From a virus: a DNA stretch of 64,000 bases. Location of the stretch: the IMG/VR virus record IMGVR_UViG_3300027793_000055, positions 123,751 to 187,750 of that record. One strand, given 5' to 3'. Of this stretch, positions 11,997 to 58,807 are shown piece after piece (positions within the stretch are counted from its first letter, which is position 1; every line of letters begins with the position of its first letter). The notes below the pieces were generated by a model. It made no database searches. It was given only the letters and a program-made list of their open reading frames with translations, and was not told the origin of the DNA. Position numbers and translations under genes: made by a program.

Positions 11997-12242
11997 TTAT
12001 TCAACACGAATTAAGTATTTATATGATAATCTTGATACTTCTATTTCGCTTTCTTGAAAGTAAATGTCTGCAATTTTAAGAAAGTTATCACATAAAATTA
12101 CAATTCCTATATCATCCTGATTAATTAGGCCATTGTTATGAGATATGATTCGTCCCCAATCTCTTGGATTTAAAATTGGTGGCCCATGATAAAAAATTAA
12201 ATCACCAATTGACAGAATATCGGTTTGTATTAAAATAGACAC
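11997..12242 (-). CDS. Small SH3-like family protein
   Basis: An 81-residue protein with LSIGDLIFYHG near the start, an IGIVILCD central strand and a short C-terminal strand. It is a member of the tiny SH3-like family that expands at 27-36 kb. It is the last gene before a terminator. The function is unknown. Confidence 0.7.
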   Translation of the reverse strand: MSILIQTDILSIGDLIFYHGPPILNPRDWGRIISHNNGLINQDDIGIVILCDNFLKIADIYFQESEIEVSRLSYKYLIRVE

Positions 12243-12257
12243 ATATTTAAATATGCA

Positions 12258-12842
12258 TCAATCACCAGAATAGAAGTCTGGATCATTTGGATTTAAGAAA
12301 TCTAATAGATTAATATCGTATTCTTCTGGATCAATAGTATTTGAACGCGAATCCATAAGCCAACCAGTATAATCTGGTGTTTCTAGAACATCTGGAATAT
12401 CCTTTGGAGTTACTTCTTTAGTTGGAACTGGTTTTTCTGACTTTTTAGGTGGTGGATCTGGTGCAAAAATAGATTTTAATGCATCATTTGTACTTTTTTT
12501 CTTAAAATCTTCCCATTTCTGAAGTTCGTTGCCGGCTTTGTATAGGGATGTTTTTCTGTCTGCCTCAAATTTTGAACTTATTATAATATGATCAGATTTA
12601 AACCATTCATAATATGTTCCCGGTGCTAGCATAGAATAGCCATCTGATATACTTTCTTCGAATTCAACACCAATTTTATATAAAATCAAGGTATCGTCAC
12701 TGTGATCTGGTTGAATATCTTTGATAATTCCAAATTTTCCAGAAAAATTATCATAATAGTCGCGATTAAATGACCAGCGATTCCATTTGTGATCCGGGAT
12801 ACCGGTAATTTCTACCCAATTTCCTATTTTAAAATTAGACAT
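12258..12842 (-). CDS. Hypothetical protein with SH3-like N-terminus
   Basis: A 194-residue protein beginning MSNFKIGNWVEITGIP and FGIIKDIQ, the pattern of the small SH3-like family. A proline/lysine-rich, disordered linker follows (PPPKKSEKPVPTKE), and the C-terminal tail is acidic. It is longer than its relatives and probably has a tail for partner binding. Confidence 0.7.
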   Translation of the reverse strand: MSNFKIGNWVEITGIPDHKWNRWSFNRDYYDNFSGKFGIIKDIQPDHSDDTLILYKIGVEFEESISDGYSMLAPGTYYEWFKSDHIIISSKFEADRKTSLYKAGNELQKWEDFKKKSTNDALKSIFAPDPPPKKSEKPVPTKEVTPKDIPDVLETPDYTGWLMDSRSNTIDPEEYDINLLDFLNPNDPDFYSGD

Positions 12843-12867
12843 ATTATTAATTCTTTTAAAATACTGT

Positions 12868-13146
12868 TTATTTATTGATACAATACTGTTTTACTTCATA
12901 AGTAAGACAATTTAAATTAAGAAGTTTTAAATATTCTGCCAATTCTTCTTCAGATTCTATCCAATAATATTCTATTTCAAATGTATCAAAACAAAAAACA
13001 GAAATTAACCAAATCGGTTTTTCTTGCTTATAGTTCGGAATAGCACAACTAGTACTTAAGGAACATTTATAAAAACAATTATCAACTTTAACCCGAATAA
13101 TCTCAGATTTTAATATGTTGTATAATTGTTTTATTTTTTTAATCAT
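12868..13146 (-). CDS. Hypothetical protein
   Basis: A 92-residue mixed alpha/beta protein with five scattered cysteines (CFYKC, CAIP, CFDTF, CLTY). It overlaps the UvdE stop by 4 nt and is likely co-translated with it. No family was recognised. Confidence 0.7.
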   Translation of the reverse strand: MIKKIKQLYNILKSEIIRVKVDNCFYKCSLSTSCAIPNYKQEKPIWLISVFCFDTFEIEYYWIESEEELAEYLKLLNLNCLTYEVKQYCINK

Positions 13147-14084
13147 ACTTTAATAGAGAAATCTTTCCTCATTTTAAATATTGCAAGATTTTTCATTTTT
13201 GCTTCGATATCTAAATCAATTAAATCTAGACGTGAAAGCTGTAATTGACAATCTGGTACATAGTGAATATAGTTGCTATGTTTCCTACGCTCTGGAAAAG
13301 AACCTTTTTCCATTCCCGGTTCTGTATTAGAGAGATGCTGTAGCGGCTTATAATCCACTCCATCGCGTTTCCAAGTAAGAGATGCGTATGAACACGCCTC
13401 ATCACAACTAAAGCCGTCCTGATTAAACTGGTGATGATGTGAATCAAAGACAATTGGTGTACCGGTTTCTTTATGCACGTGCAGTAGTTGCTTGACTGAA
13501 AAACAACGCTCATCGTTTTCGAGTGTTAGCCGGTTACGAATATTATCAGGTAGAATTTTGATTGTTTCAATTAGTTTAGAACTGTTGCCGCGCTTTCCAC
13601 CGTGGATATTAATAGCAGCCTCCGGAGTTTCAGGGAGTCCCATTTGATCAAAGACCCACGCATGATATGCGAGTTCATTGATTGAATTTTTAATAACGTG
13701 CTCTGCATCACTATTAATAATAGTGAATTGGCCGGGATGTGTTGTGACACGAATTCCGTTTTGTTTAAACAAGTCGCCAAGTTTTTTTAGTTTACGGCAT
13801 AAAATTTGGTCATTATGAATTGTTGAAATATTAAATTCATATAGTGGAAATAGACTACTAGAAAGTCGGAATGACTTAATATTATTTTCTACAAGTTTTT
13901 GTACAATTTTAATATGTTCATCAACATTATTATGATAGGTAGATGAAATACGTGTTAGTGGATATTTTCCACTTTTGAAAGAGCCAAGTTGTAGACTTTT
14001 TTCATTAATAATGTTTTTATATTCAATTAAACCATTTCTTTTATTTTTTGGTTCAATCCATTGACAGCACAAGCCCAAAGCCAT
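13143..14084 (-). CDS. uvsE: UV damage endonuclease UvdE/UvsE
   Basis: A 313-residue TIM-barrel nuclease with LGLCCQWIEP, ISSTYHNN, VTTHPGQFTI, NIHGGKRGN, LENDERCFS and FDSHHHQ blocks, which carry the metal-binding His, Glu and Asp residues of the family. UVDE nicks DNA 5' of UV photoproducts and abasic sites. It starts an operon that runs to the terminator at 11.96 kb. Confidence 0.95.
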   Translation of the reverse strand: MALGLCCQWIEPKNKRNGLIEYKNIINEKSLQLGSFKSGKYPLTRISSTYHNNVDEHIKIVQKLVENNIKSFRLSSSLFPLYEFNISTIHNDQILCRKLKKLGDLFKQNGIRVTTHPGQFTIINSDAEHVIKNSINELAYHAWVFDQMGLPETPEAAINIHGGKRGNSSKLIETIKILPDNIRNRLTLENDERCFSVKQLLHVHKETGTPIVFDSHHHQFNQDGFSCDEACSYASLTWKRDGVDYKPLQHLSNTEPGMEKGSFPERRKHSNYIHYVPDCQLQLSRLDLIDLDIEAKMKNLAIFKMRKDFSIKV

Positions 14085-14128
14085 TATTAACTCCTATAAA
14101 TTTGGCAAACTTTATATAAACAAATAAA

Positions 14129-23232: not shown

Positions 23233-23487
23233 TTAATCCTCGATGCCAGAAACAATATATAAAAAACTGGATACTACTGTTGTAGTATGACCATTTTGCC
23301 AGTATATTCTGGCATACCATTCTTGTTCAAAAGTAAAAACTTCTACAATAAGTCCTAATAGATTAGGATCAGACAGATATATATCAGCTCTAACTAAATC
23401 ACCAACAAAAATAGGTTGAGTTTTCCTAGAAAAATGGTTTCCTCTATGTACCTTTTTTAGAAGATTATCCTTTTTTGTTTTTGGCAT
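23233..23487 (-). CDS. Small SH3-like family protein
   Basis: An 84-residue protein with a basic leader and the family core IFVGDLVRADI...LLGLIVEVF...ARIYWQNGHTTTV. It ends with a strand-like tail. The start overlaps the next gene's stop by 23 nt. Confidence 0.7.
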   Translation of the reverse strand: MPKTKKDNLLKKVHRGNHFSRKTQPIFVGDLVRADIYLSDPNLLGLIVEVFTFEQEWYARIYWQNGHTTTVVSSFLYIVSGIED

Positions 23488-23764
23488 TTTTACTTATTAC
23501 AACAATATCTGCTATGCGCCTTATTCTGGCTTTATGTAGTGTCTCTTCTCTATCTAGATTCTGCCAATAAACTCGCACAAAAGAAAGATTATTTTCATTT
23601 AAATCACAATCTTCTATATCCCACGTTGGATACCATTCAGTTTGAGATATTTCTTCTAATACTACACCTATTCCTCTTTCTAAAGGATCTCGACCAACAT
23701 ATTCAACTAAATCACCTTTTTGAAAGGAGTTTCTTTTATGTCTTGTGTGCGTTTTTGGCATCAT
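23465..23764 (-). CDS. Small SH3-like family protein, long variant
   Basis: The protein has 99 residues from MMPKTHTRHKRNSFQKGDLV. Core blocks are KGDLVEYVG, RGIGVVLEE and VRVYWQNLDREETL. A 30-residue insertion separates the two strand pairs. A terminator lies upstream of the gene. Confidence 0.7.
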   Translation of the reverse strand: MMPKTHTRHKRNSFQKGDLVEYVGRDPLERGIGVVLEEISQTEWYPTWDIEDCDLNENNLSFVRVYWQNLDREETLHKARIRRIADIVVISKNAKNKKG

Positions 23765-25763: not shown

Positions 25764-26849
25764 TCACTTCTTGGTAGCTACATCAGAAAGCAGCTTAGTG
25801 ATATAATCACCAACCTTAACACCATTAATCACAGCCTTGTGGAGTGCAATAGTGTTATCCTTTGGAGCGGGGGGACGACCAACATTCTTCCACAGCTTCA
25901 TTGTGGCTTCTGAAGGAAGCATAAACAAATAGGTAGCAAGATTAGTGATCTGTTCAGTAGTCAGCTTATCCTGCAAAACCTTGCAAGCATCCATCTTATC
26001 GATCAGCTGAATATGCTCATTGAGAGCAAACTTCTCAACAAGATTGAACTTACCATTATCAATAATATCAGCCGGTGTAACGATTCGCTGATAGTTCTGA
26101 ATAAAACTACCAAGTTCGATGGCTGCTTCATAACCAATAAATGCAGCAGAAAGAGGAATAATATCCTTGCTGTATTCGCCAGTCAACAGACCAGCATGCT
26201 GCATTACATCATTGCAACGCTTCCAAGAACGTCGTGAAGGATACTTCTTGTTTGGCTCAAAATCACCATTATTATGCTCAAGATGATTGCGATGATTATT
26301 GATAAAGTCCCAGATAACACTGTGGACATTATCCTTAGCCCAAGCAAGCCAATCTTCGATAGTAGGCTCAACGTCAAAGACAGACCAACGATCAAGTTCC
26401 GCCGGATCCATCTCACCAACCTGATACTGTGCAGCGTGCATACCGCCGTTAACAGCAGCAAAGATACGAGTGCCACGGTGAAGCACATGACCATTCAGCT
26501 TACGAGAATCAGTAAGCTCAAAGATACCCTGACGAACCTCGATGGTTGCACGATCAACCTCATCAAGAAACAAAACGACGGGATGCTCGCAAGCCTCCTT
26601 AAACCAATCCGGCGGATTGAAAGAGGTACGATTACCATTAATCGAAGGCAGACCAACAAGATCGCCCTCCGTCATCTGTGATGCACGACGTTCAACAACC
26701 GGCATGCCGAGTTCTCGTGCAACCTGATACACAAGTTCGGACTTACCAATACCATGACGACCACGAATAAGAATCGGCTTTGCTTCTGCAATAACCGAAG
26801 GAATAATGCGATTGAAAGTGGCAAAGTCAACAGAAAGACCAAAGGACAT
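25764..26849 (-). CDS. MoxR-family AAA+ ATPase
   Basis: A 361-residue AAA+ protein: Walker A GRHGIGKS (30-37), Walker B VVLFLDEVDRA (91-101), sensor-like FAAVNGG and an arginine-containing PAELDRW loop. MoxR ATPases act as chaperones with VWA proteins to mature or dismantle complexes. GC-rich codons, a strong promoter and a 59-bp-upstream TGATCT/AGATCA element mark it as early. The two-gene pairing with 23814-25082 is strong context. Confidence 0.9.
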   Translation of the reverse strand: MSFGLSVDFATFNRIIPSVIAEAKPILIRGRHGIGKSELVYQVARELGMPVVERRASQMTEGDLVGLPSINGNRTSFNPPDWFKEACEHPVVLFLDEVDRATIEVRQGIFELTDSRKLNGHVLHRGTRIFAAVNGGMHAAQYQVGEMDPAELDRWSVFDVEPTIEDWLAWAKDNVHSVIWDFINNHRNHLEHNNGDFEPNKKYPSRRSWKRCNDVMQHAGLLTGEYSKDIIPLSAAFIGYEAAIELGSFIQNYQRIVTPADIIDNGKFNLVEKFALNEHIQLIDKMDACKVLQDKLTTEQITNLATYLFMLPSEATMKLWKNVGRPPAPKDNTIALHKAVINGVKVGDYITKLLSDVATKK

Positions 26850-27044: not shown

Positions 27045-27290
27045 CTAATTTATTAGTACAAATTCCCAAACTCCCTCATCTAATAGTTTAACTATATCTT
27101 CTTTTTCTATCCAAGTTGTTTTACCTTGTGGCTTCCCATTTAAAAAAGTTAAACCATAAAACTCTGCATATCCATTATTTTCTTTTAGAGGTGAAGGACC
27201 GCACGAAAACCCAGAGACATATACAAGAACATCACCGCCAGACAGAAAAAAATCTCCTATCTTTATTTCTAAATCTTTTTTTTCTGTCAT
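27045..27290 (-). CDS. Small SH3-like family protein
   Basis: An 81-residue protein with EIKIGDFFLSGGDVLVYV and a GLTFLNGKPQGKTTWIEK tail. It is the last of a run of adjacent tiny genes in this direction. The function is unknown. Confidence 0.65.
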   Translation of the reverse strand: MTEKKDLEIKIGDFFLSGGDVLVYVSGFSCGPSPLKENNGYAEFYGLTFLNGKPQGKTTWIEKEDIVKLLDEGVWEFVLIN

Positions 27291-27497
27291 CTATATCACC
27301 GCTTTAAAATATCTATCTAAAGTACGGACTACCCAATAACTGCTATATAAAGTATTTTGATGAACAAGATAAGCATGATGTTTATCAGCTCTGATAACTA
27401 AAAATAAATCACCTTTTTGACATTTGACTTCTCTGAGTTCTTCTTGACTAATGAAAGAATCAATTTGATAGTGTAAGAGTGAACCAACATTATACAT
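27291..27497 (-). CDS. Small SH3-like family protein, divergent
   Basis: A 68-residue protein (MYNVGSLLHYQ...CQKGDLFLVIRADKHHAYLV). The family core appears twice in part. Its stop directly abuts the next start. Confidence 0.65.
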   Translation of the reverse strand: MYNVGSLLHYQIDSFISQEELREVKCQKGDLFLVIRADKHHAYLVHQNTLYSSYWVVRTLDRYFKAVI

Positions 27498-27498
27498 T

Positions 27499-27705
27499 TT
27501 ACTTAATCTTTCTCATTTGATGAGACTTTACAATAGGATTACTCTCCGCTGAAGTAGAAAGAATCTCATAAACAGTTCTCTGTGTTGTATCATAAATACC
27601 ATCTGTAATATCGTGAATGGCATAAACAATACCAACACCGTTGATTTGTGTATTGTCGGGTAGCTTACGAGAATATTCGATAAGATCACCAACTTGATAT
27701 TTCAT
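27499..27705 (-). CDS. Small SH3-like family protein
   Basis: A 68-residue protein with MKYQVGDLIEYSRKLPD and VGIVYAIHD. The tail is Thr/Ser-rich. It shares one base with the next gene's frame end. Confidence 0.7.
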   Translation of the reverse strand: MKYQVGDLIEYSRKLPDNTQINGVGIVYAIHDITDGIYDTTQRTVYEILSTSAESNPIVKSHQMRKIK

Positions 27706-27929
27706 TACTCCACCAAAGGATAATGGACATAAATGTGATAACGAACAAAATACTCTAAAATATTTCCAGAGAATACATCTTCTTTACCATCGGGAGAGAT
27801 ATAGAAAGTGTAATATATATCTTTATCATCCTCGTCTATGTCAATAAGAAGGAAACTTCTAGTTCCTTCTTTGTGGCGTGTATCAATAAACATATCACCG
27901 ATATTGTAGTTGGTCAAATGCCACTTCAT
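27705..27929 (-). CDS. Small SH3-like family protein
   Basis: The protein has 74 residues from MKWHLTNYNIGDMFIDTRHK (ATG at 27929, overlapping the upstream stop as TAATG). The core blocks FLLIDIDED and YYTFYISPDG fit the family. Confidence 0.7.
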   Translation of the reverse strand: MKWHLTNYNIGDMFIDTRHKEGTRSFLLIDIDEDDKDIYYTFYISPDGKEDVFSGNILEYFVRYHIYVHYPLVE

Positions 27930-28114
27930 TAAGTTTCCTTTGATATAGCCCATTTTCCTTTTTCAATCAGGCTTACAGCAACGTTAACTGAAAAAGGCAT
28001 AGTCTTTAAACTATCCTGCCAAAATAGAAACAGTTGTCCTTGAACAATATCAGTAACCAGTGCAATTCTATGGCTATTACGAACAACAATAAGATCGCCA
28101 ACTTGGAAATGCAT
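27929..28114 (-). CDS. Small SH3-like family protein
   Basis: The protein has 61 residues from MHFQVGDLIVVRNSHRIALV. Core: IVQGQLFLFWQDSL. It is a textbook short family member with the W-Q-D strand end. Confidence 0.75.
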   Translation of the reverse strand: MHFQVGDLIVVRNSHRIALVTDIVQGQLFLFWQDSLKTMPFSVNVAVSLIEKGKWAISKET

Positions 28115-28125
28115 ATACACCAAAA

Positions 28126-28142
28126 CCCACTTATTAAGTGGG
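28126..28142 (-). terminator. Hairpin terminator
   Basis: The stem CCCACTT/AGTGGG is followed by TTTTGG on the minus strand. It ends the zinc-knuckle transcript. Confidence 0.7.
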
Positions 28143-28160
28143 CTAAAAGTGATTTAAATT

Positions 28161-28751
28161 TTACTTCTTTGGAAAGAACCTTTCTTCTATGTGACTGCTC
28201 TTACCAGAGAACCAATCTTCTGGAATCTGGGTAATAACCATCTCTTCACTTACACCGGAAAGAAGTGTCATATAGTAATCATTATAACCGGCGGTGCTTT
28301 CTAGTTTAGAGAACTTTTCCAATTTAATGGGATAACGAGTGTATTGGCTAGCATCAAGCGTAATACTATCACTATTTTCGTGATAAGTGATTCTATCCCA
28401 ATTAATTTCTGTGATAATAGCCATATGGCTATCGTACCTAGGCTCAACAAGAGCACCGATACCAAATCCAGTTTTACACATTTTCTGGAAGAGGTTCTTT
28501 CGATATTCTGCATTTTTTGCAATAGCTTGTGAATAATCTACGATGAGCTTCTTGCAAGTCTTTCTATTGTGGCTAGTTTCACCACAATAACCACACCTTT
28601 TGGTAGTATTTGAAGAAGCATGATGAGCCACTTTTTGTGCTGCATAACTATTTGGATTTTGTCGTGCCTGTTCTTTTAGTTTAGGGCATCCTCGCTGATT
28701 ATGTCCAGTACCACCGCACCAACGACAGTGCACGCTTCTACGATAGACCAC
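28161..28751 (-). CDS. Zinc-knuckle protein
   Basis: A 196-residue protein with GTG start and an AGGAGATCACC ribosome site. Two CCHC knuckles (CRWCGGTGHNQRGC at about 9-22 and CGYCGETSHNRKTC at about 52-65) suggest RNA or single-stranded DNA binding. The C-terminal half, with KTGFGIGALVEPRYDSHMAI, resembles an SH3-like core. The protein at 37560-38135 has the same layout and is a paralogue. Confidence 0.85.
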   Translation of the reverse strand: MVYRRSVHCRWCGGTGHNQRGCPKLKEQARQNPNSYAAQKVAHHASSNTTKRCGYCGETSHNRKTCKKLIVDYSQAIAKNAEYRKNLFQKMCKTGFGIGALVEPRYDSHMAIITEINWDRITYHENSDSITLDASQYTRYPIKLEKFSKLESTAGYNDYYMTLLSGVSEEMVITQIPEDWFSGKSSHIEERFFPKK

Positions 28752-28780
28752 GGTGATCTCCTTTGTTTGCCGGGGAAGTC

Positions 28781-28809
28781 AGCATAGCATGGATCGATCC
28801 TATCGTCAA
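28781..28809 (-). promoter_or_regulatory. Sigma70 promoter with two GATC in the spacer
   Basis: TTGACG (28804-28809), 17 nt, TATGCT (28781-28786). It is preceded by TGC. The spacer has GATCGATC. Confidence 0.75.
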
Positions 28810-28843
28810 CAGATAAGAACGTTCTATGCCATAGATATAAAAA

Positions 28844-29047
28844 CTAAGATATTTTAATAACTTTAATTTTTATTGTTGAAACAACAGGTTTAATGTTATA
28901 GATTAATTCCTGCCCTATTTCTGCTGTTATGACAGCCATATGTTCACAAGCCGGAATATCTACAATTTGTATAAGCTCTTGAAATGAGGCTGACTCATAA
29001 AATACTCTGCCAGTCTCAATCGATAATACTCTATATTTTGGCGGCAT
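28844..29047 (-). CDS. Small hypothetical protein
   Basis: A 67-residue protein (MPPKYRVLSIETGRVFYESA...KPVVSTIKIKVIKIS). It is beta-rich with a weak ribosome site. It lies just past a promoter. No family. Confidence 0.6.
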   Translation of the reverse strand: MPPKYRVLSIETGRVFYESASFQELIQIVDIPACEHMAVITAEIGQELIYNIKPVVSTIKIKVIKIS

Positions 29048-29052
29048 ATGTT

Positions 29053-29295
29053 TTATTCTACTATAGAAAATGCATCCTCTAGAACATCGGTATACATCTC
29101 AATATATGAACCACTGATAGATTGAATTGTATACTCATGAAGAAGTCTGTTCTTTGATTGTATATTTTTAGAAATGATAAGAAAAAGTTGACCTTTTGTA
29201 AAGGAAAAATATTCACTGTTAATATCAGCGAATGTTCTAGAGAAATTTAAGCATATAAGATCACCAATCTTAAACTTATTCTGGCTCATATTCAA
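29053..29295 (-). CDS. Small SH3-like family protein
   Basis: An 80-residue protein with NKFKIGDLICLNFSR and FTKGQLFLIISKN. It overlaps the upstream gene's stop. Confidence 0.7.
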   Translation of the reverse strand: MNMSQNKFKIGDLICLNFSRTFADINSEYFSFTKGQLFLIISKNIQSKNRLLHEYTIQSISGSYIEMYTDVLEDAFSIVE

Positions 29296-29506
29296 TCTTC
29301 CAATAGCCGCGTTTAATATCCCTATCTAGATAAGTATCCAATATACAAAACTCCTGACTATCATCCATAAAATGAAATAAATAATAATATTTACCACTAT
29401 CGGTACTTATCCCTCCAGAAAGAAGTAAGGCAAGAGTATCATAAGTATCATCTGCAAAATCCTTGAAAGAAAAGATGGTACCAGTTTTAAAAGTTTTCCG
29501 ACTCAT
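29276..29506 (-). CDS. Small SH3-like family protein (TGT-IFSF subtype)
   Basis: A 76-residue protein (FKTGTIFSFKDFADDTYDTL...YYLFHFMDDSQEF). It is very similar in layout to its neighbour at 29487-29726. Confidence 0.7.
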   Translation of the reverse strand: MSRKTFKTGTIFSFKDFADDTYDTLALLLSGGISTDSGKYYYLFHFMDDSQEFCILDTYLDRDIKRGYWKIEYEPE

Positions 29507-29726
29507 GTTCTAGTATCCAATATCCTTGAACAAGCTTCCACTCTAAATCAGTAGCAGCTAAATTATAATAATTTTCTATAGCCGTATCATAGAATCTATA
29601 TCCAATATTATTTCCATCTTTGTGAGAAGAAACCAGTAAAACAAAAGTTGTATCTTTTTCTTCACCTTCGTAATAAGAACGAGGCTCTATAAAAGAAAAC
29701 AAGGTACCAGTTTTATACTGTTTCAT
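29487..29726 (-). CDS. Small SH3-like family protein (TGT-LFSF subtype)
   Basis: The protein has 79 residues from MKQYKTGTLFSFIEPRSYYE. It shares the TGTxFSF core, LLVSS strand and W...GYWxxEHE ending with the neighbouring gene, so the pair looks like a tandem duplicate. Confidence 0.7.
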   Translation of the reverse strand: MKQYKTGTLFSFIEPRSYYEGEEKDTTFVLLVSSHKDGNNIGYRFYDTAIENYYNLAATDLEWKLVQGYWILEHESENF

Positions 29727-29895
29727 ATATTTCAAATCTATCGTCTTCAAGATCTATACAACTGAGCGTATGATCTACCGATTCACACCAAACAGTTTTA
29801 TACCAGGTTTGCTCTTTTGTTTCTCTTTCTATTTTTACAATTACTCCCCATTCTTCATCCCAATTATCATAAATAAGGGTACCAACTTTAAACAT
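29713..29895 (-). CDS. Small SH3-like family protein
   Basis: A 60-residue protein (MFKVGTLIYDNWDEEWGVIV...WYKTVWCESVDHTL). It has the W-strand and DDRF turn of the family. Confidence 0.7.
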   Translation of the reverse strand: MFKVGTLIYDNWDEEWGVIVKIERETKEQTWYKTVWCESVDHTLSCIDLEDDRFEIYETV

Positions 29896-29896
29896 T

Positions 29897-30133
29897 TTAT
29901 TGATTGCCGTGGTATTGAATTAGTGTAGACCAAGCAACAAGATTAATATCGTGGTCTTGAAAAACATTCAATCGCGTTGGCCAATATACTTTCATCATTT
30001 TAGTCATCTTACCTTTATATCTGGCTTCATAAAGATCAATTATAATACCAAACCCACCTTCATCGGGTAGATTTAGAAAAAGAAGATCCCCCACCTTTAC
30101 TGGTGGAGGATTACCAAGTGAATAACTATTCAT
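29897..30133 (-). CDS. Small SH3-like family protein
   Basis: A 78-residue protein with PVKVGDLLFLNLPDEGGFGI and MKVYWPTRLNVFQDHD. Its start overlaps the next gene's stop by 4 nt. Confidence 0.75.
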   Translation of the reverse strand: MNSYSLGNPPPVKVGDLLFLNLPDEGGFGIIIDLYEARYKGKMTKMMKVYWPTRLNVFQDHDINLVAWSTLIQYHGNQ

Positions 30134-30834
30134 CGTGACAGCTTCAAGTATCGTTCTTCAATATTGATCAAAACATCATCACCAATAGGCAGCAATGAAT
30201 AAGAACGTGAACCAGCAGCAGCACGAACTTTATTGGTAACTTCAATAATAATAAAAGTATTATCGTTGTGCTTGCCAGCAACAAAAGAATTTTTTCCAAC
30301 ATTAGTCAACACAACAGCATCACCATTGTTAAACTTTGGTTTAGAAGCCAATTGTTCAAGATAACGCTGTGCATATTTATTATTCACGATCTTTTCATAA
30401 GTCTGCTCGGAAGGGATATAACTTTCTTCCGCGAGTACCTTTTCGCAGGTATCACGATAATAATAGGGCTGGCTTCCGGCTGCAGCCATATCCTTGTACC
30501 ACTTGGCAATGAGACGCATCTTTGTTCGCTTGTCCTCATCATACGATGCTTGCCATGCTTTGATAATGGCAGCATTCTCTTGCAAAGCATCATCGGAATA
30601 CCTCTTTTCGTTATCTTCGATGCATCTAACTTGATTAGTCGAAAGCGAACCCCGTGCATTAAATTGTTCAAGGAGAGAACGCATGAACTCTTCAGTCTTA
30701 GGATACTGACGAACAGCAGGATTAGTAAGTAGCTTTTCAAGCCTTTCTTTAAGGGATGGATCATTTACACGAGTATTGATAGAGTTAAATTGATTATTGG
30801 TTGGAGCCGGCTTAAAATGACGATAATAAGGCAC
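30130..30834 (-). CDS. Conserved phage protein with SH3-like C-terminus
   Basis: The 234-residue protein (GTG start with GAGGTTAAAA) has a helical middle (LEQFNARGSLSTNQVRCIED) and a C-terminal FNNGDAVVLTNV...YSLLPIGDDVLINIEERY barrel-like region. The layout occurs in other large phages. It begins a transcript from the promoter at 30865-30893. The function is unknown. Confidence 0.75.
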   Translation of the reverse strand: MPYYRHFKPAPTNNQFNSINTRVNDPSLKERLEKLLTNPAVRQYPKTEEFMRSLLEQFNARGSLSTNQVRCIEDNEKRYSDDALQENAAIIKAWQASYDEDKRTKMRLIAKWYKDMAAAGSQPYYYRDTCEKVLAEESYIPSEQTYEKIVNNKYAQRYLEQLASKPKFNNGDAVVLTNVGKNSFVAGKHNDNTFIIIEVTNKVRAAAGSRSYSLLPIGDDVLINIEERYLKLSR

Positions 30835-30864
30835 TTTTAACCTCGTTTGTGCTGTCCGATAGCT

Positions 30865-30893
30865 ATCCTATCACACATTCCGCCTTCTGTCAA
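30865..30893 (-). promoter_or_regulatory. Sigma70 promoter
   Basis: TTGACA (30888-30893), 17 nt, TAGGAT (30865-30870). Confidence 0.85.
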
Positions 30894-30912
30894 CAACAAG
30901 TAAAGTCGATTA

Positions 30913-31170
30913 TCAATTAATTGTTTTTGAGTTTTTATTTAATCTTTTTACTATAGCAAAAAGAAGGTGCGATACATATGTTTCTGCTGTTCTTTTTCCA
31001 GCTAAGTCAGAGTGTGATAAATATGCATCAATATAATCCTGAATTACTGTACCAATTTCACTTAAAATAAGTTTTTCTGGATCTTCTCTTGTTAATTCTT
31101 CTATAATGAGATTTTCCTGTTTTATAATTTCTTTTTCTTCGCTCGAAAGAGGAGTATTCTTTTTCTTCAT
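30913..31170 (-). CDS. Small helical hypothetical protein
   Basis: An 85-residue protein (MKKKNTPLSSEEKEIIKQEN...ETYVSHLLFAIVKRLNK), helical and charged. It is not an SH3-like family member. It is just upstream of the 30.13 kb gene's promoter. Confidence 0.65.
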   Translation of the reverse strand: MKKKNTPLSSEEKEIIKQENLIIEELTREDPEKLILSEIGTVIQDYIDAYLSHSDLAGKRTAETYVSHLLFAIVKRLNKNSKTIN

Positions 31171-31407
31171 TTATACGACCTTTAAAGTAAGTGTAGCTGT
31201 AGCAACTGTGTAATCCATATATTTTTGAGCATCTTGCCAAAATACAATCAGTCTAGTATTATCTATAGATGTAATTACCCCAAAGCCATTACCATATGCT
31301 GCTTTGAATTTATAAATATCTTGAAGTTCGACCAGATCACCTAATTTAAAAGTGTGAGGATATGAAAGAGTACCATCCGGGTTTGTTATAAGTTTTTTTC
31401 TTGCCAT
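31171..31407 (-). CDS. Small SH3-like family protein
   Basis: The protein has 78 residues from MARKKLITNPDG (ATG at 31407 with a GAGGATT site). Core: FKLGDLVELQ, NGFGVITSID, LIVFWQDAQKY. It is a full-length family member. Confidence 0.75.
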   Translation of the reverse strand: MARKKLITNPDGTLSYPHTFKLGDLVELQDIYKFKAAYGNGFGVITSIDNTRLIVFWQDAQKYMDYTVATATLTLKVV

Positions 31408-31408
31408 T

Positions 31409-31618
31409 TTAATCCTCAAAAATCAATAGTTTATTGATTTCAAAATAATAAGTTTTATCTGGTATTTGCTGAAATACGATTCCAACATCGCCATATCCAT
31501 CATCACCATCAACAACAATAGCTAATCTATATTCATCTGCTGAATCTTTAAGATATGCATGTGCTACTAACTGACCAATTTTGATATTTTCAATAGTTGC
31601 AGCTTTAATGTTAGGCAT
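31409..31618 (-). CDS. Small SH3-like family protein
   Basis: A 69-residue protein with NIKIGQLVAHAY, LAIVVDGDDGYGDVGIVFQQ and a LLIFED tail. Confidence 0.7.
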   Translation of the reverse strand: MPNIKAATIENIKIGQLVAHAYLKDSADEYRLAIVVDGDDGYGDVGIVFQQIPDKTYYFEINKLLIFED

Positions 31619-31777
31619 TTAGAGTTTTTTAATTCGATTGTAATTTATAATATATTCTGTATCTCGTGAATGAATATAGATTTTAGCCATTTCTTTATGA
31701 GGCCAAATATCTAAAATTGTTGCAAGAAGATTGCCAATCTTTGTTTCGACAATATCGCCTACATTAAAATAGTTCAT
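31619..31777 (-). CDS. Small SH3-like family protein
   Basis: The protein has 52 residues from MNYFNVGDIVETKIGNLLAT. The frame could reach 31825, but the internal ATG is better placed relative to the family start. Confidence 0.65.
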   Translation of the reverse strand: MNYFNVGDIVETKIGNLLATILDIWPHKEMAKIYIHSRDTEYIINYNRIKKL

Positions 31778-31797
31778 AAAACCCACTAAATAATTAT

Positions 31798-31986
31798 TTA
31801 AAAGGAAATTTTCTGATATAAGCACTCTATATTCGCAAGAGACTCATCAGAAACAAATCCATCAAAAAAATTTGGCCAATATACCTTAAATCCATATTGT
31901 TTTTCTGGATCTATTGCGAATATAATCCCAATTTGTTTGTCATTTGGATCAAAAATAAGAGTTCCAACAACTTCTTGATTATTCAT
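31798..31986 (-). CDS. Small SH3-like family protein
   Basis: The protein has 62 residues from MNNQEVVGTLIFDPNDKQIG. It has IIFAID and FKVYWPNFFDG, a clean family signature. Confidence 0.7.
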   Translation of the reverse strand: MNNQEVVGTLIFDPNDKQIGIIFAIDPEKQYGFKVYWPNFFDGFVSDESLANIECLYQKISF

Positions 31987-32179
31987 AACACACTCTTTTA
32001 ATGTCCTGAAAATATTCATCTATTGGCTTGTTTTTATTTGGCCAAAATACAGTTACCTTTGGATTCATAGAAGAACTATCAACTGCTATAACAATACCAT
32101 AACCATACTGTTGTGTTGAGTTAAAATTCGCCTCAACAAGATCACCAACCATAAACATTTGTGAACGAAATTTAGCCAT
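31979..32179 (-). CDS. Small SH3-like family protein
   Basis: The protein has 66 residues from MAKFRSQMFMVGDLVEANFN. Core YGYGIVIAVD and VTVFWPNKNKP. The ribosome site is GGTGAAG. Its start nearly abuts the upstream gene's stop. Confidence 0.7.
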   Translation of the reverse strand: MAKFRSQMFMVGDLVEANFNSTQQYGYGIVIAVDSSSMNPKVTVFWPNKNKPIDEYFQDIKRVCYE

Positions 32180-32180
32180 A

Positions 32181-32453
32181 TTATTCTTCACCATAGCTTG
32201 GTGACAAAGCACCTTCTAGAAGTGCAGAAGTACCATCTTTATTGAAGGTTCTTCTATCTTCAATAGGCTTACTAAAGTCATGCATGTTCTTATGCATAAG
32301 AAGATTGATTGGCTCACTCAAAGGAATATCCTGAATAATATGGCCTTTGTTTGGATCAAGTTGCACAAAATCAACCTTACTAATAGGAATTAGCCTACCA
32401 TATACACGAATAAACATAACATCATTATTACCAATATCAATATATTTATTCAT
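32181..32453 (-). CDS. Small hypothetical protein
   Basis: A 90-residue protein (MNKYIDIGNNDVMFIRVYGR...ALLEGALSPSYGEE). It lacks the GDL core. It is coupled to the neighbouring genes. The function is unknown. Confidence 0.65.
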   Translation of the reverse strand: MNKYIDIGNNDVMFIRVYGRLIPISKVDFVQLDPNKGHIIQDIPLSEPINLLMHKNMHDFSKPIEDRRTFNKDGTSALLEGALSPSYGEE

Positions 32454-32461
32454 AATTTCCT

Positions 32462-32710
32462 TTAAATTTCGATCTTGGAAAAGTACGGACTTTTATAACT
32501 GTGAAGATCATTTTTATGCCAGTATAGAACACGATCTGTTTTTACAGAAAGAATTTCGTATTGTTGTTCGCCATCAATAATCAAATTATCTGAAATAATA
32601 AGAAAAAGATCTCCAACATTACATTGTATACTTTCTTCATAATCAAGACCAACAGAAAGATAAATATTTTTATTAATCTGAATAAGGTCGCCGGTTTTAA
32701 ACAGTTTCAT
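32462..32710 (-). CDS. Small SH3-like family protein
   Basis: An 82-residue protein with KLFKTGDLIQINKNIYLS and QCNVGDLFLIISDN, i.e. two GDL elements, suggesting an internal repeat or a doubled core. Confidence 0.65.
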   Translation of the reverse strand: MKLFKTGDLIQINKNIYLSVGLDYEESIQCNVGDLFLIISDNLIIDGEQQYEILSVKTDRVLYWHKNDLHSYKSPYFSKIEI

Positions 32711-32934
32711 AACTTACGCATATACCTTTCTGTCAGGCAGATTTTATCTGAGATTAAAAAGTGATTTTCATACTCTCCCTGTAAAAATATGCTGTATATA
32801 TTTTCTTCCCAACCTGAATCTCGGCCACGATGCCGAGAATAGATAATACCAGTAAGTATCTGCGGCTCTCCAGATATAGATGGTATATGGCAAACTATTA
32901 ATTCACCAATCTTGTATTTATATCTGGCTTTCAT
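32707..32934 (-). CDS. Small SH3-like family protein
   Basis: A 75-residue protein (MKARYKYKIGELIVCHIPSI...ENIYSIFLQGEYENH). Confidence 0.7.
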   Translation of the reverse strand: MKARYKYKIGELIVCHIPSISGEPQILTGIIYSRHRGRDSGWEENIYSIFLQGEYENHFLISDKICLTERYMRKL

Positions 32935-33422
32935 GGGTTATTAAGCATTAGCTGTTCATTAGTCAAACCAAGTGAAACACATTTCTTATAAAAGCGATTC
33001 CAAGTAAGATGCTGCACAACCTTAAACTTATGATTTCGTACCTGCTTTTCTTCAATAACAAAGAGTTTATAATTTTTTGGATTAAATTTAAGGTTTCCCT
33101 TCATCGAATACGATTGATACCAAGTTTTTTCGCTAGAAGGAAGAACACAATGGACGGTAAAATAGTGAAAATTATTTTTAATTGCATTGATGAATGAAAC
33201 TGGTTTTGATGCAAGATTCATGACAACTGTTAACCTATCTTCTCCTTGCCAAGAATTAATATTTGCAGTAGCATCTGCAACTGATTCTTCAACAGTAAAA
33301 CGAAAAAATGAAATAACTTCTTCTTCATTATCAAAAAAGATAGCTCGATCTGTAGTGCCATAATGATAATCATAAAGAAAATCAAGAAGTGACCAACCCT
33401 TTGGCTTGAGCATATACTTCAT
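32931..33422 (-). CDS. Hypothetical protein
   Basis: A 163-residue mixed protein (WSLLDFLYDYHYGTTDRAIF...LTWNRFYKKCVSLGLTN). It overlaps the next gene by 4 nt. No family was recognised. Confidence 0.7.
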   Translation of the reverse strand: MKYMLKPKGWSLLDFLYDYHYGTTDRAIFFDNEEEVISFFRFTVEESVADATANINSWQGEDRLTVVMNLASKPVSFINAIKNNFHYFTVHCVLPSSEKTWYQSYSMKGNLKFNPKNYKLFVIEEKQVRNHKFKVVQHLTWNRFYKKCVSLGLTNEQLMLNNP

Positions 33423-33435
33423 AATGTTCTACCTT

Positions 33436-33618
33436 TCAGTTATAAGCAAGACGAATGATAAAAAGCTGTCTCAAAAAAAGTGTTTTATCTGAATGAATAA
33501 TGCTGTAGATTGTATCTCCTAGAAAGTCCTCGTCAATAAATTCAATAAGACCAATTTGTTCTTCATCACCATATTTAAAGACGACTAAGTCACCAACATT
33601 GTACTTATTCATAATCAA
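33436..33618 (-). CDS. Small SH3-like family protein
   Basis: A 60-residue protein (MIMNKYNVGDLVVFKYGDEE, QIGLIEFIDEDF). The start overlaps the zinc-ribbon gene's stop by 4 nt. Confidence 0.7.
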   Translation of the reverse strand: MIMNKYNVGDLVVFKYGDEEQIGLIEFIDEDFLGDTIYSIIHSDKTLFLRQLFIIRLAYN

Positions 33619-33968
33619 ATACCATCACGATTCTTGTAGTTGTAAGCATCAGCAGTATGCAAACAAGCACCTTCCGTCTTGATAAGACGACGATGCTTGG
33701 ACACTTGATTGATATTGTCACCCATATTGCTACCCTTGTTCTTCAACTTGGTAGTAGCATTAAGATAATCGGTGAGTGCAGGATCGGTATTGATCTGAAT
33801 AGAACAACCAGTCTTGTGCGAATAGATCATATTGCCCGTATATTTTACAGCTTCACACTCATCTTCGCCACACTCGTTGCAAACAATAGCACGACCGGGC
33901 TTACCCTTGCGAGAAGCCTTGTCATAATCAGCACCACAAGAAGCACAAACTGCATTGTAAATCGGCAT
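33615..33968 (-). CDS. Zinc-ribbon protein
   Basis: A 117-residue protein with CASCGADYDK...CNECGEDEC near the N-terminus, a two-CxxC zinc ribbon, and a basic, Asn-rich C-terminal part. The ribosome site AGGTGATC matches the 16S tail very well. It heads a transcript from the promoter at 34001-34029. DNA or RNA binding is plausible. Confidence 0.75.
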   Translation of the reverse strand: MPIYNAVCASCGADYDKASRKGKPGRAIVCNECGEDECEAVKYTGNMIYSHKTGCSIQINTDPALTDYLNATTKLKNKGSNMGDNINQVSKHRRLIKTEGACLHTADAYNYKNRDGI

Positions 33969-34000
33969 AGATCACCTATCGCGGAAAAGGCTACATCCCG

Positions 34001-34029
34001 ATCCTACCACGGGATCGGGTTCGCGTCAA
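34001..34029 (-). promoter_or_regulatory. Sigma70 promoter with GATC in the spacer
   Basis: TTGACG (34024-34029), 17 nt, TAGGAT (34001-34006). Confidence 0.85.
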
Positions 34030-34044
34030 GGGGTTTCTGCGGGA

Positions 34045-34176
34045 TCATTCTTCGTCGGGCTTTACTTTATTACGACGACGATTCTTACTGTGCCATTTTT
34101 TATCTTTGTGTTGTCCAGCACCTTTTCGGTTCCAAGCATTTTGTGCAACACGATTACGAATGTTTAGCATAGTCAT
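34045..34176 (-). CDS. Small basic protein
   Basis: A 43-residue Arg/Lys-rich protein (NAWNRKGAGQHKDKKWH followed by SKNRRRNK), likely nucleic-acid binding. Too short for standard gene calls, but it has an ATG and a clean stop. Similar tiny basic proteins occur in other phages. Confidence 0.6.
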   Translation of the reverse strand: MTMLNIRNRVAQNAWNRKGAGQHKDKKWHSKNRRRNKVKPDEE

Positions 34177-34180
34177 ATAA

Positions 34181-34342
34181 TTAGTCCACAGGTTTAATCA
34201 TCATCGCAAGTTGAAAGTCCTCAAAATAATCTGGAGCATTGATCCAATCTAACTCTAACACATTTGGGTCTGGTGTGTCAACTACAATAGCAAGAAAACC
34301 TTGATATTCAACCATATCACCGATTTTAAATTTATACTTCAT
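34181..34342 (-). CDS. Small SH3-like family protein, 53 residues
   Basis: MKYKFKIGDMVEYQGFLAIV, then VLELDWINAPDYFED: the family core in its shortest form. The start overlaps the upstream stop as ATGA. Confidence 0.7.
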   Translation of the reverse strand: MKYKFKIGDMVEYQGFLAIVVDTPDPNVLELDWINAPDYFEDFQLAMMIKPVD

Positions 34343-34524
34343 TCGTAAACCTCTAAACGATGAATTGAGATTAGTTCTTTTATTTCATTCTCGGAATACC
34401 AACTAGATGTTCCATTAGTCCAATAAATATCATAAATTCTATCTCTTACACGATAGATATAGCCACATGAGTCAATATGATTGTGATTATCCTGATGTAT
34501 GACTAAACTACCAACTTTACACAT
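34339..34524 (-). CDS. Small SH3-like family protein (YxVYE-tail subtype)
   Basis: A 61-residue protein (MCKVGSLVIHQDNHNHIDSC, IYRVRDRIYDIYWTNG) ending LISIHRLEVYE. The protein at 34957-35145 has the same ending and is a close paralogue. Confidence 0.7.
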   Translation of the reverse strand: MCKVGSLVIHQDNHNHIDSCGYIYRVRDRIYDIYWTNGTSSWYSENEIKELISIHRLEVYE

Positions 34525-34525
34525 A

Positions 34526-34949: not shown

Positions 34950-34956
34950 ATGAAAA

Positions 34957-35145: not shown

Positions 35146-35168
35146 TATTAAAATACCTATTCTATATC

Positions 35169-41577: not shown

Positions 41578-41892
41578 TCATTTCTTGACCTTTGTTAGTG
41601 TTTTTTCTACTTCTTCAAAAGAGGAACAAACAAGAATCTGCGAACTTACATTACCATTATTAAAGATAAGTAAGGTTAATTCTTTATCTATCAGTTGTGT
41701 AGTATCTGTTGGATATGTAGTGTATTCTGGATCTGGATAGTATTCTTTAATGGAAGTCTTTTTAGCTACGGAAAGATTCGTTAGATTGATAATTTGTTTT
41801 TCTACAGAAGCTTTAAATCCTTGTACTTTTCTGTTTTTTTCATCTGTTAAGATAGTTGCTTCTCTATTGACAACGTCCATCGTTATAAACAT
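41578..41892 (-). CDS. Hypothetical protein
   Basis: The protein has 104 residues from MFITMDVVNREATILTDEKN. The C-terminal EELTLLIFNN-like strand and CSSFEEVEKTLTKVKK helix hint at a small alpha/beta fold. It overlaps its neighbour by about 29 nt. Confidence 0.65.
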   Translation of the reverse strand: MFITMDVVNREATILTDEKNRKVQGFKASVEKQIINLTNLSVAKKTSIKEYYPDPEYTTYPTDTTQLIDKELTLLIFNNGNVSSQILVCSSFEEVEKTLTKVKK

Positions 41893-42103
41893 CGGATACC
41901 TCGTATATGTGTTTTTTATCAATTATCCAATAATCACCATCATAAAAAACTGTTGCAGTTTTATCATCAAACATATCAACTATAACAGCTAATTGTGGTA
42001 GGGCAGTTATTTTCTGCCTTTTAATTAATTTCTCTTCTTTAGAGGCCCAAAGAAGATGGGTACCAGCCGGTACCCATACAAGTTCACCCACCTTGCGATT
42101 CAT
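41864..42103 (-). CDS. Small SH3-like/phage conserved protein
   Basis: A 79-residue protein (MNRKVGELVWVPAGTHLLWA, QLAVIVDMFDDKTATVFYDG, YWIIDKKHIYEV). The second half is a clear SH3-like strand set. Close homologues exist in marine phages. The function is unknown. Confidence 0.75.
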   Translation of the reverse strand: MNRKVGELVWVPAGTHLLWASKEEKLIKRQKITALPQLAVIVDMFDDKTATVFYDGDYWIIDKKHIYEVSDVYNDGRCQ

Positions 42104-43953: not shown

Positions 43954-43976
43954 TACAAACTCCAATCTGTCGGTCT

Positions 43977-51021: not shown

Positions 51022-51520
51022 ATTTGTAAATTTCTCCAGTGGATATTGTAGCACCAAGACGTGGATCTTTCAACGGCTTATTTGAAGTTTTCATTTTCAT
51101 AAACTTCTTTTTTAGTTTTGGCAACAATATTTCATAAACCTGAGTACCGCTCATCTTCCACGTTTCAACAATATTACCATTTTTATCAAAGCGAGAATAA
51201 AAGTGTTCCTCGTAACACAGGATTTTTTCTTCTTTCAGATATTTTTCTTGCTCTTCCCAAGTTTCTAGAACAGAAATACCATTATATGTTGCATTTATTT
51301 TATCACTAATTGTTGATTTATATTCAACTTTTTTACCTTCAGAATTAAAGGCATCTGCACCAGAATACGTTTGTGCTACTGTATGACCAAATTTAAATGC
51401 TTGATATATCTCTTTTCCACGAGCATAAGAAAAAGGATCACCAACACCATTTTCATAACATATTTTAGTTAATTTTTCAAAAAGTTCAACATACTGTTCT
51501 TTAAACGAACTCGTTGTCAT
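51005..51520 (-). CDS. PD-(D/E)XK nuclease, restriction endonuclease candidate
   Basis: A 171-residue protein with GADAFNSEGKKVEYKS, giving D56 and E66-x-K68, the PD-(D/E)XK catalytic triad spacing. The overlap with a methyltransferase gene is the arrangement expected of a restriction-modification pair. It lacks obvious homology to a named enzyme here, so the specificity and activity are unknown. The alternative is a phage host-DNA-degrading nuclease with a protecting methylase. Confidence 0.7.
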   Translation of the reverse strand: MTTSSFKEQYVELFEKLTKICYENGVGDPFSYARGKEIYQAFKFGHTVAQTYSGADAFNSEGKKVEYKSTISDKINATYNGISVLETWEEQEKYLKEEKILCYEEHFYSRFDKNGNIVETWKMSGTQVYEILLPKLKKKFMKMKTSNKPLKDPRLGATISTGEIYKYATKV

Positions 51521-51818
51521 TTTGTATCTCTTTCTCTATTGTTCTTAAGTTATCAATAAATTTTTTAATATGACCTGCTGAATATCTAGATATTGGTTCT
51601 TCATAGTCACACCACAAAATGGTATATGATGTACTATCGATAAAGGTTTCTTTATAGAGTTGATAGTACTTATCTTCCAAATTTATTGGCTCAGTATTTA
51701 TTATTAGACCAAAAGTATATATTTTTTCGAAATCTTCCGGTTTCGCATCAAATATATTTATATTATTTTTTGGCCTTGTATGAATATCTACAACTAGTTG
51801 TCCTATTTGATACAACAC
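51501..51818 (-). CDS. SH3-like family protein, long variant
   Basis: A 105-residue protein with a GTG (or TTG) start and IGQLVVDI. The start codon lies in the CACTCTA...TAGAGTG hairpin (51816-51836). It is first after the promoter at 51859-51887. The function is unknown. Confidence 0.6.
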   Translation of the reverse strand: MLYQIGQLVVDIHTRPKNNINIFDAKPEDFEKIYTFGLIINTEPINLEDKYYQLYKETFIDSTSYTILWCDYEEPISRYSAGHIKKFIDNLRTIEKEIQNDNEFV

Positions 51819-58154: not shown

Positions 58155-58164
58155 TTTTTTTCTC

Positions 58165-58371
58165 CTAATAAGCTTTCTTAAATTCTCGATGATTAAACAG
58201 TCTTAATACAGAATCATCCATAAGAAGCTGATATGTATGCAGAATGTGATTCTCTGGAACACTGGTATCAAAATCAACAATTAGACCAATCCTATGTTGG
58301 TATTTTGTAAAAGGTAGTATTTCTACCAAATCACCAATTTGGTAGCTATAGTTATAGAATTCTTTGTTCAT
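58165..58371 (-). CDS. Small SH3-like family protein
   Basis: A 68-residue protein with SYQIGDLVEILPFTKYQHRIG, or GLIVDF, and a C-terminal YQLLMDDSVLRLF strand. A member of the expanded family, far from the main array. Confidence 0.7.
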   Translation of the reverse strand: MNKEFYNYSYQIGDLVEILPFTKYQHRIGLIVDFDTSVPENHILHTYQLLMDDSVLRLFNHREFKKAY

Positions 58372-58395
58372 GAAAGCACCTGAAATTCGCTTTCT

Positions 58396-58488
58396 TTATA
58401 AGCCAATTTTTTGTTCTGAATTATTCAGAGGTATCGATACAAGATCGCCAACTTTTGGTATTATATTACTTGTTTTTTGCTCTTCCAA
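58396..58488 (-). pseudogene. Truncated SH3-like family member
   Basis: The frame from a TTG reads MEEQKTSNIIPKVGDLVSIP then LNNSEQKIGL and ends early. It keeps the N-terminal half of the family core and lacks the W strand. It looks like a decayed copy overlapping the end of 58466-58807. Confidence 0.5.
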
Positions 58489-58807
58489 GCGGCGAGACAA
58501 AAGAGATCGCATAGGAACCCATCTTAGCATGCTCCTCTTCATTTGTCAACTCGCACTCAAACACAAGCCAAGTTTTGCCGGTTTGTTGTGAATGCCAAAC
58601 ATATGTATTGAAATTTTTATTTTTTTTTGTAAAAAGACTATTTGAGCTATAACTTCCTATTATAACACCAACATTATTGGCTTCTTCCATATAGAAAGGT
58701 CTATTCCACTTCTTTCTTAATGATATATATGGACCAAATTCAACTGGTGTCGGATCTTTTTCAGACATACCGGTATAAAAAGCTAATTGACCTACTTTAA
58801 ACTTCAT
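58466..58807 (-). CDS. SH3-like family protein, extended
   Basis: A 113-residue protein with MKFKVGQLAFYTGMSEKDP, NVGVIIGSYSS, TYVWHSQQTGKTWLVFE. A longer loop between strands. It is one of the last members in the window. Confidence 0.7.
   Translation of the reverse strand: MKFKVGQLAFYTGMSEKDPTPVEFGPYISLRKKWNRPFYMEEANNVGVIIGSYSSNSLFTKKNKNFNTYVWHSQQTGKTWLVFECELTNEEEHAKMGSYAISFVSPLGRAKNK

What the first reader, a model, noticed from the sequence alone, without database searches (positions are those of the whole stretch)
11997..58807. Expanded array of about 30 tiny SH3-like proteins
From 27.0 to 35.8 kb, and scattered elsewhere (11.9, 12.3, 23.2, 23.5, 41.9, 51.5, 58.2, 58.5 kb), genes of about 50-110 residues share F-K-x-G-D-L-V ... 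G-I-G-x-V ... V-x-W-x-N. Several are obvious tandem duplicates (29276/29487, 34339/34957, 34526/34722, 35378/35551). One copy at 58.4 kb is truncated. Such birth-and-death expansion is typical of genes in conflict with host proteins, and this many in one phage segment is striking.
Basis: partly seen in the sequence, partly recalled or inferred. Interest (0 to 1): 0.8.

Follow-up and report, generated by a model that had tools for sequence, protein, structure and literature searches.

The report
Shuffled cassettes of tiny SH3-like genes
This marine phage carries about 25-35 tiny, very divergent barrel-shaped proteins, and its relatives hold the same family as strings of swappable one-gene cassettes in which each gene's tail doubles as the start signal of the next, so genes can be reshuffled between viruses without breaking the operon.

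Summary
The window, part of a 187,750-base IMG/VR phage contig, has about 36 candidate tiny SH3-like genes, all on the minus strand. Twenty match a family profile built only from other phages (0 of 53 neighbouring genes and 0 of 108 shuffles do), seven more are linked by homology or an AlphaFold model, about nine rest on motif alone. The fold is a Tudor/KOW-like SH3 barrel.

Main result: in related uncultured phages the same locus holds dense arrays of 20-32 members joined by one junction, GGAGGTTATCARTGAAAGTCGGTGATTTGGT. It encodes at once the C-terminus (LEVISESR) and stop of one gene and the Shine-Dalgarno, start and N-terminus (M/V-K-V-G-D-L-V) of the next, overlapping by 14 bases. Cassettes recur in other phages between unrelated neighbours, and homology ends at the junction. 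No integrase, resolvase or reverse transcriptase was found; a RecA-type recombinase is always present. Median dN/dS is 0.18.

The window phage has the family and locus but not the junction: a divergent form with high turnover. I infer early, diversified binding modules against host factors; no function was tested.

The parts
27045..35751 (-). Main cluster: about 24 SH3-like genes, packed with 0 to -14 nt spacing, upstream of the ATPase gene
29897..30133 (-). SH3-like member; jackhmmer from it reaches 940 members in 97 loci
   Evidence: profile probability 98%
31979..32179 (-). SH3-like member used for the AlphaFold model
   Evidence: profile probability 97%; pLDDT 85.8, five strands
31171..31407 (-). 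SH3-like member
   Evidence: profile probability 94%
23233..23487 (-). SH3-like member
   Evidence: profile probability 96%
23465..23764 (-). SH3-like member (start assigned by eye)
   Evidence: profile probability 95%
58165..58371 (-). SH3-like member
   Evidence: profile probability 94%
34339..34524 (-). SH3-like member
   Evidence: profile probability 93%
34181..34342 (-). SH3-like member
   Evidence: profile probability 93%
27929..28114 (-). SH3-like member
   Evidence: profile probability 92%
33436..33612 (-). SH3-like member
   Evidence: profile probability 92%
27499..27705 (-). SH3-like member; 46% homologue lies at another place in the order of L088
   Evidence: profile probability 91%
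29713..29895 (-). SH3-like member; 46% homologue displaced in L088
   Evidence: profile probability 87%
29053..29289 (-). SH3-like member
   Evidence: profile probability 78%
32707..32934 (-). SH3-like member
   Evidence: profile probability 74%
31798..31986 (-). SH3-like member
   Evidence: profile probability 73%
35551..35751 (-). SH3-like member (start assigned by eye)
   Evidence: profile probability 68%
31619..31777 (-). SH3-like member (start assigned by eye)
   Evidence: profile probability 67%
32462..32710 (-). SH3-like member
   Evidence: profile probability 64%
31409..31618 (-). SH3-like member
   Evidence: profile probability 58%
27045..27290 (-). SH3-like member
   Evidence: profile probability 55%
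34957..35145 (-). SH3-like member by link to 34339 (39% identical)
35378..35554 (-). SH3-like member by link to 35551 (32% identical)
27705..27929 (-). Divergent subgroup; model is a barrel with an added helix
   Evidence: pLDDT 87; SH3/Tudor-type matches
34526..34732 (-). Same divergent subgroup as 27705
34722..34949 (-). Same divergent subgroup as 27705
29276..29506 (-). Divergent member, weak link to the family through L088 3218-3451
29487..29726 (-). Divergent member paired with 29276 (30% identical)
58466..58807 (-). Candidate, motif and weak profile support (38%)
12258..12842 (-). Candidate N-terminal domain, weak support (26%)
41864..42103 (-). Candidate, motif only
11997..12242 (-). 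Candidate, motif only
51501..51818 (-). Candidate, motif only
27291..27497 (-). Candidate, motif only
58396..58542 (-). Truncated SH3-like copy (first two strands only)
28161..28751 (-). Double CCHC-like zinc-knuckle protein with possible SH3-like C-terminal part; conserved marker of the locus
30130..30834 (-). 234-aa protein with a G-D type motif near its C-terminus; conserved marker of the locus (72% in L088)
25764..26849 (-). MoxR/CobS-like ATPase that anchors the locus; homologues used to fetch related arrays
   Evidence: phrog_1297, E 4e-51

Best explanation
The genes form one large, fast-diverging family of about 60-residue SH3 (Tudor/KOW-like) barrels, transcribed early on one strand. 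In sister phages they are single-gene cassettes. Each cassette runs from one copy of a roughly 31-base junction to the next. The junction encodes the C-terminus and stop codon of the upstream gene and, in overlap, the Shine-Dalgarno, start codon and first residues of the downstream gene. A cassette moved by homologous recombination between junctions therefore stays in frame, terminated and translated, and the array works as a plug-and-play operon fed from a population-wide pool of cassettes. The window phage belongs to the same lineage and has the same locus and family, in a derived or ancestral form without the junction, where genes still turn over and change order. The products most likely act early in infection as diversified binding modules that block or redirect host factors, defence included. 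Shown: fold (predicted), family, junction, shuffled cassettes with edges at the junction, purifying selection, promoter orientation. Inferred: homologous recombination as the mover, and the binding role.
For: Family and locus. Fold. Junction: 359 of 901 neighbour spacings are exactly -14; 452 motif copies in 62 loci and none in shuffles; 240 of 277 cassettes have the required length of 1 mod 3 and 239 are open. DNA-level selection: Glu of LEV is GAG 98% vs 40% in gene bodies, p 9e-46; Ile is ATC 79% vs 28% and Leu6 is TTA/TTG 85% vs 39%, outside the start and stop codons. SESR ends: 325 of 331 are followed at -14 by a new start. Shuffling: identity falls from 0.81-0.91 inside cassettes to 0.34-0.37 outside, with the drop within the junction; 81% of family pairs have no conserved neighbour vs 43% of other small genes in the same loci; one cassette occurs in 11 contigs, nearly all with different neighbours. 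Selection: median dN/dS 0.18, none above 1 in 82 pairs. Machinery: RecA-type protein in 15 of 15 contigs. Early expression: 166 near-consensus sigma-70 promoters on the coding strand vs 14 on the other and 5.8 in shuffles.
Against: The window itself has no copy of the junction, so the cassette mechanism is shown only in relatives; in the window lineage reshuffling rests on the changed order of 28-46% homologues in L088. Recombination at the junction is inferred from patterns; selection for in-frame products would also leave breakpoints there. No function, expression or host is known. About nine window candidates lack statistical support.
Confidence: 0.65

Rival explanations
1. Ordinary birth and death by tandem duplication within each genome.
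For: Four adjacent or near-adjacent pairs in the window are each other's best relatives; a truncated copy exists; seven genes here where a relative has three.
Against: Pairs are only 30-39% identical. In relatives only 2 of 7241 within-locus pairs reach 60% identity while 305 between-locus pairs do. Cassettes recur between different neighbours.
Confidence: 0.15
2. Nucleic-acid-binding KOW-like proteins acting on the nucleoid, transcription or ribosomes, like the KOW-type early protein MotB of T4.
For: Best profile and fold neighbours include NusG KOW, uL24, and the UvrD/PcrA Tudor that contacts RNA polymerase. MotB has a predicted KOW domain and is an early protein (PMC7827196).
Against: Net charge centres on zero with pI from 4.2 to 9.9, and loops are near-random with no conserved basic patch, which does not suit one shared nucleic-acid ligand. 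Matches are to fold type, none below E 0.001 in the fold search.
Confidence: 0.2
3. An integron-like system: cassettes moved by a site-specific recombinase acting on the junction.
For: Cassette ends are exact and the junction is conserved beyond what translation needs; it has a weak imperfect palindrome.
Against: No tyrosine or serine recombinase in any of 15 long contigs; only a weak hairpin (-2.6 kcal/mol).
Confidence: 0.08
4. The junction is only a compact translation signal; cassettes spread by illegitimate recombination, and selection keeps in-frame products.
For: Every base of the SD, start and stop has a translational reason.
Against: Ile ATC and Leu TTA/TTG preferences outside those signals are not needed for translation, though common descent of junctions by copying could explain them.
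Confidence: 0.2

Closest known systems
SH3/Tudor-like small-barrel clusters of phage proteins (Viral AlphaFold Database, PMC12487901)
   Same: Small SH3/Tudor-like barrels are the largest phage-only structural cluster, so the fold is common in phages.
   Different: The sections read (the structural-clustering section and keyword passages) mention no arrays, junction or shuffling; that study lists folds, not gene arrangement.
Conserved boundary sequences in lambdoid phages (Clark et al. 2001; Susskind and Botstein 1978; cited in PMC3029335)
   Same: Short conserved sequences at gene borders proposed to let homologous recombination swap modules.
   Different: There they were proposed at scattered module borders, and PMC3029335 says they cannot be found at most mosaic boundaries. 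Here one junction recurs at many gene borders of long one-family arrays and codes for both genes at once.
Integron gene cassettes
   Same: Arrays of promoterless single-gene cassettes from a large shared pool.
   Different: No integrase found, no strongly folded attC-like site, and the border is coding sequence with built-in SD, start and stop.
T4 MotB (KOW-type early protein, PMC7827196)
   Same: Early phage protein with a predicted KOW/SH3-like domain that alters host gene expression.
   Different: Single conserved gene with an extra OB-fold domain; no array.

Membership tests
SH3-like (Tudor/KOW) small-barrel fold | Five-stranded small barrel | tested here: met
   Models of 31979 and 27705, pLDDT 86 and 87; Tudor/chromo/KOW matches up to TM 0.67 for 31979, weaker (about 0.4-0.5) for 27705
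SH3-like (Tudor/KOW) small-barrel fold | Significant sequence match to a named Pfam or PHROG family | tested here: not met
   No window protein among the ten scanned passes a cut-off; scattered weak KOW/Tudor/UBE2O matches in relatives
One homologous family within the window | Each candidate recognised by a profile built without window sequences | tested here: inconclusive
   20 of 36 at 50% probability or more, 0 of 53 controls above 10%; others linked or unsupported
Boundary-sequence mosaicism | Conserved sequence at gene borders | tested here: met
   Met in relatives; not present in the window
Boundary-sequence mosaicism | Homology between genomes ends at that border | tested here: met
   Met in relatives:
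Boundary-sequence mosaicism | Recombination stimulated by the border | not testable with these tools
   needs a recombination assay
Integron | Tyrosine integrase encoded | tested here: not met
   0 of 15 contigs; serine recombinase also 0 of 15
Integron | Folded attC sites | tested here: not met
   37-nt junction folds to -2.6 kcal/mol only
Diversity-generating retroelement | Reverse transcriptase encoded | tested here: not met
   0 of 15 contigs
Counter-defence or host-takeover genes | Inhibit a host system when expressed | not testable with these tools
   only indirect support

The most novel reading that the evidence does not exclude
A previously undescribed modular gene-array system in a widespread group of uncultured large marine phages: one-gene SH3 cassettes whose shared overlapping junction is at once coding sequence of two genes, ribosome-binding site, start, stop and recombination site, giving an open-ended, swappable repertoire of small binding proteins.
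Probability: 0.5. Interest if true: 0.9.

Novelty: new variant of a known kind. Interest (0 to 1): 0.8.

Why it matters
It offers a concrete, testable design for how phages keep a large, swappable arsenal of small proteins: every cassette brings the start signal of its neighbour, so any order works. It would make the old idea of boundary-sequence shuffling directly testable, and the hundreds of distinct members (744 clusters at 60% identity, with no sign of levelling off) are a library of candidate inhibitors of host and defence proteins.

Tried and rejected
Pfam and PHROGs scans gave only weak, scattered matches. tblastn and blastn of members, an array stretch and the junction against 50,697 phage records found no array; the short junction matches in Salmonella phages such as Det7 lie on the opposite strand to the annotated gene and are taken as chance. 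The genome scan found the junction in two MAG contigs only, too weak to name a host. Integrase, resolvase and reverse transcriptase searches were negative. Uniformly acidic DNA mimics and uniformly basic nucleic-acid binders were rejected on charge. Ten literature searches found no description of such arrays in the papers held; preprints and most subscription journals are not held, so prior description cannot be excluded. A first strict motif regex found nothing because it was too narrow.

Full report
What was checked. The window is bases 123,751-187,750 of a 187,750-base IMG/VR phage contig. I listed 36 candidates. All-against-all BLASTP shows a loose web of relationships at 20-40% identity. 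The named tandem pairs are 30-39% identical in protein and 40-59% in DNA, so they are old. The copy at 58396-58542 is truncated.

Are they one family? Jackhmmer started from window member 29897-30133 reached 940 proteins in 97 of the loci held. A profile built from 878 members of other phages, leaving out the window, recognises 20 of 36 candidates at 50% probability or more. None of 53 other window genes exceeds 10% and none of 108 shuffled sequences exceeds 20%. Seven more are tied in by direct homology or by the model of 27705. The remaining candidates rest on the motif.

Fold. The AlphaFold model of 31979 from a 91-sequence alignment has five strands and pLDDT 85.8. Its nearest solved structures are Tudor, chromo, PWWP and KOW domains (TM to 0.67; none below E 0.001), and the profile finds NusG KOW, uL24, MIB1 and PsaE chains. 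The divergent subgroup member 27705 gives pLDDT 87, four strands, a helix and a last strand, with weaker SH3/Tudor-type matches. Conservation is confined to the barrel core (G-D-L-V, G, V-x-W, L); loops are near maximal entropy, there is no conserved polar catalytic set, and charge varies widely around zero. This suits binding modules with varied targets, and argues against an enzyme.

The main result lies in the relatives. Homologues of the neighbouring ATPase (25764-26849, phrog_1297) led to 80 loci from large uncultured phages. There, at the same place, are dense arrays of up to 32 family members. Among 901 neighbour spacings, 359 are exactly -14. The junction consensus is GGAGGTTATCARTGAAAGTCGGTGATTTGGT. 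Read in one frame it ends a gene...L-E-V-I-S/N-E-S-R-stop. Read in the next frame it begins one: V/M-K-V-G-D-L-V. The GGAGG lies at the right distance to serve as Shine-Dalgarno.

Tests of the junction. 452 copies occur in 62 loci, none in shuffled sequence; 240 of 277 cassettes have the length (1 mod 3) that the overlap demands, and 239 are open. The SESR-like ending occurs almost only when a new gene starts at -14 (325 of 331; only 6 of 474 other members have it); this is partly built in, as the ending and the next start share bases. Glu of LEV is coded GAG in 98% of junctions against 40% in gene bodies (p 9e-46). Ile is ATC in 79% against 28%, and Leu6 is TTA/TTG in 85% against 39%; these bases lie outside the start, stop and Shine-Dalgarno, so the junction is conserved as DNA, either as a recombination site or by common copying.

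Tests of shuffling. After merging near-identical contigs, 87 loci hold 941 members in 744 clusters at 60% identity, and new clusters keep appearing at a nearly constant rate. Only 2 of 7241 within-locus pairs reach 60%, against 305 between loci. Of 73 equal-length pairs at 75% or more, 53 have no homologous neighbour and 1 has two. DNA identity is 0.81-0.91 inside cassettes and 0.34-0.37 outside, with the change within the junction. One cassette occurs in 11 contigs, nearly all with different neighbours. As a control, 81% of family pairs have no conserved neighbour, against 43% of other small genes in the same loci. Of 82 pairs the median dN/dS is 0.18 and none exceeds 1, so the proteins are kept by selection.

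Mechanism. No tyrosine recombinase, serine recombinase or reverse transcriptase was found in 15 long contigs; a RecA-type protein is in all 15. Homologous recombination between junctions is therefore the simplest mover, but this is inference. Near-consensus sigma-70 promoters are 166 on the coding strand, 14 on the other and 5.8 expected from shuffles over 963 kb; in the window 9 against 1. This fits early transcription by host RNA polymerase. The looser promoter scan of 25.5-40.5 kb was close to its shuffle expectation (79 against 64.7), so no single promoter for the window's main cluster is claimed.

Back to the window. It has no junction copy, nor do its low-GC relatives. Genes are packed at spacings such as 0, 1, -1, -4 and -11 instead. 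Turnover is clear. In L021, whose GroEL is 89% identical (its contig's DNA polymerase likewise), three SH3 genes stand where the window has seven. In L088, whose ATPase is 79% identical, 28-46% homologues of 29897, 29276, 27499, 27929, 29713 and 29053 lie in a different order. So the window phage shares the locus and the habit of gene exchange; whether its junctionless state is older or derived is unknown.

Comparison with what is known. Small SH3/Tudor-like barrels are the largest phage-only structural cluster (PMC12487901), so the fold is not new. Shuffling at conserved boundary sequences was proposed for lambdoid phages, but such sequences are said to be missing at most mosaic boundaries (PMC3029335). 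Here one boundary recurs at many gene borders of long arrays and encodes two genes at once. No paper found describes it, within the limits of the library.

Noticed in passing
L093:17313, L115:18225, L126:16769, L128:14816, L131:14372, L144:15704: A conserved sigma-70 promoter-like block (TTGACTTTCAGTAGTTTAGCTGCTATACTATAAG) sits at the stop codon of the last cassette of an array, the -35 hexamer overlapping the stop.
   Followed up: partly
window 28161-28751 and 37560-38162: Two proteins with CCHC-like zinc knuckles (two in 28161, one in 37560) and a possible SH3-like C-terminal part flank or lie in the main cluster and are conserved in relatives.
   Followed up: partly
junction consensus in relatives: The junction contains a weak imperfect palindrome ATCAGTGAAAGTCGGTGAT (-2.6 kcal/mol, z -3.2), cause unknown.
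   Followed up: partly
window 36497-36901: Alternating Phe/Leu/Ala low-complexity stretch (AFAFALALPLAFPFTLSLAFAFALAL); the homologue in L021 has a different version, suggesting slippage.
   Followed up: no
window 42379-43965: Phage-encoded GroEL (phrog_5725, E 7e-140), 89% identical in the nearest relative.
   Followed up: no
window 38598-39878: 426-aa protein 92% identical to L018-L020 although the ATPase of those contigs is only 57% identical, a sign of mosaic exchange of larger blocks.
   Followed up: partly
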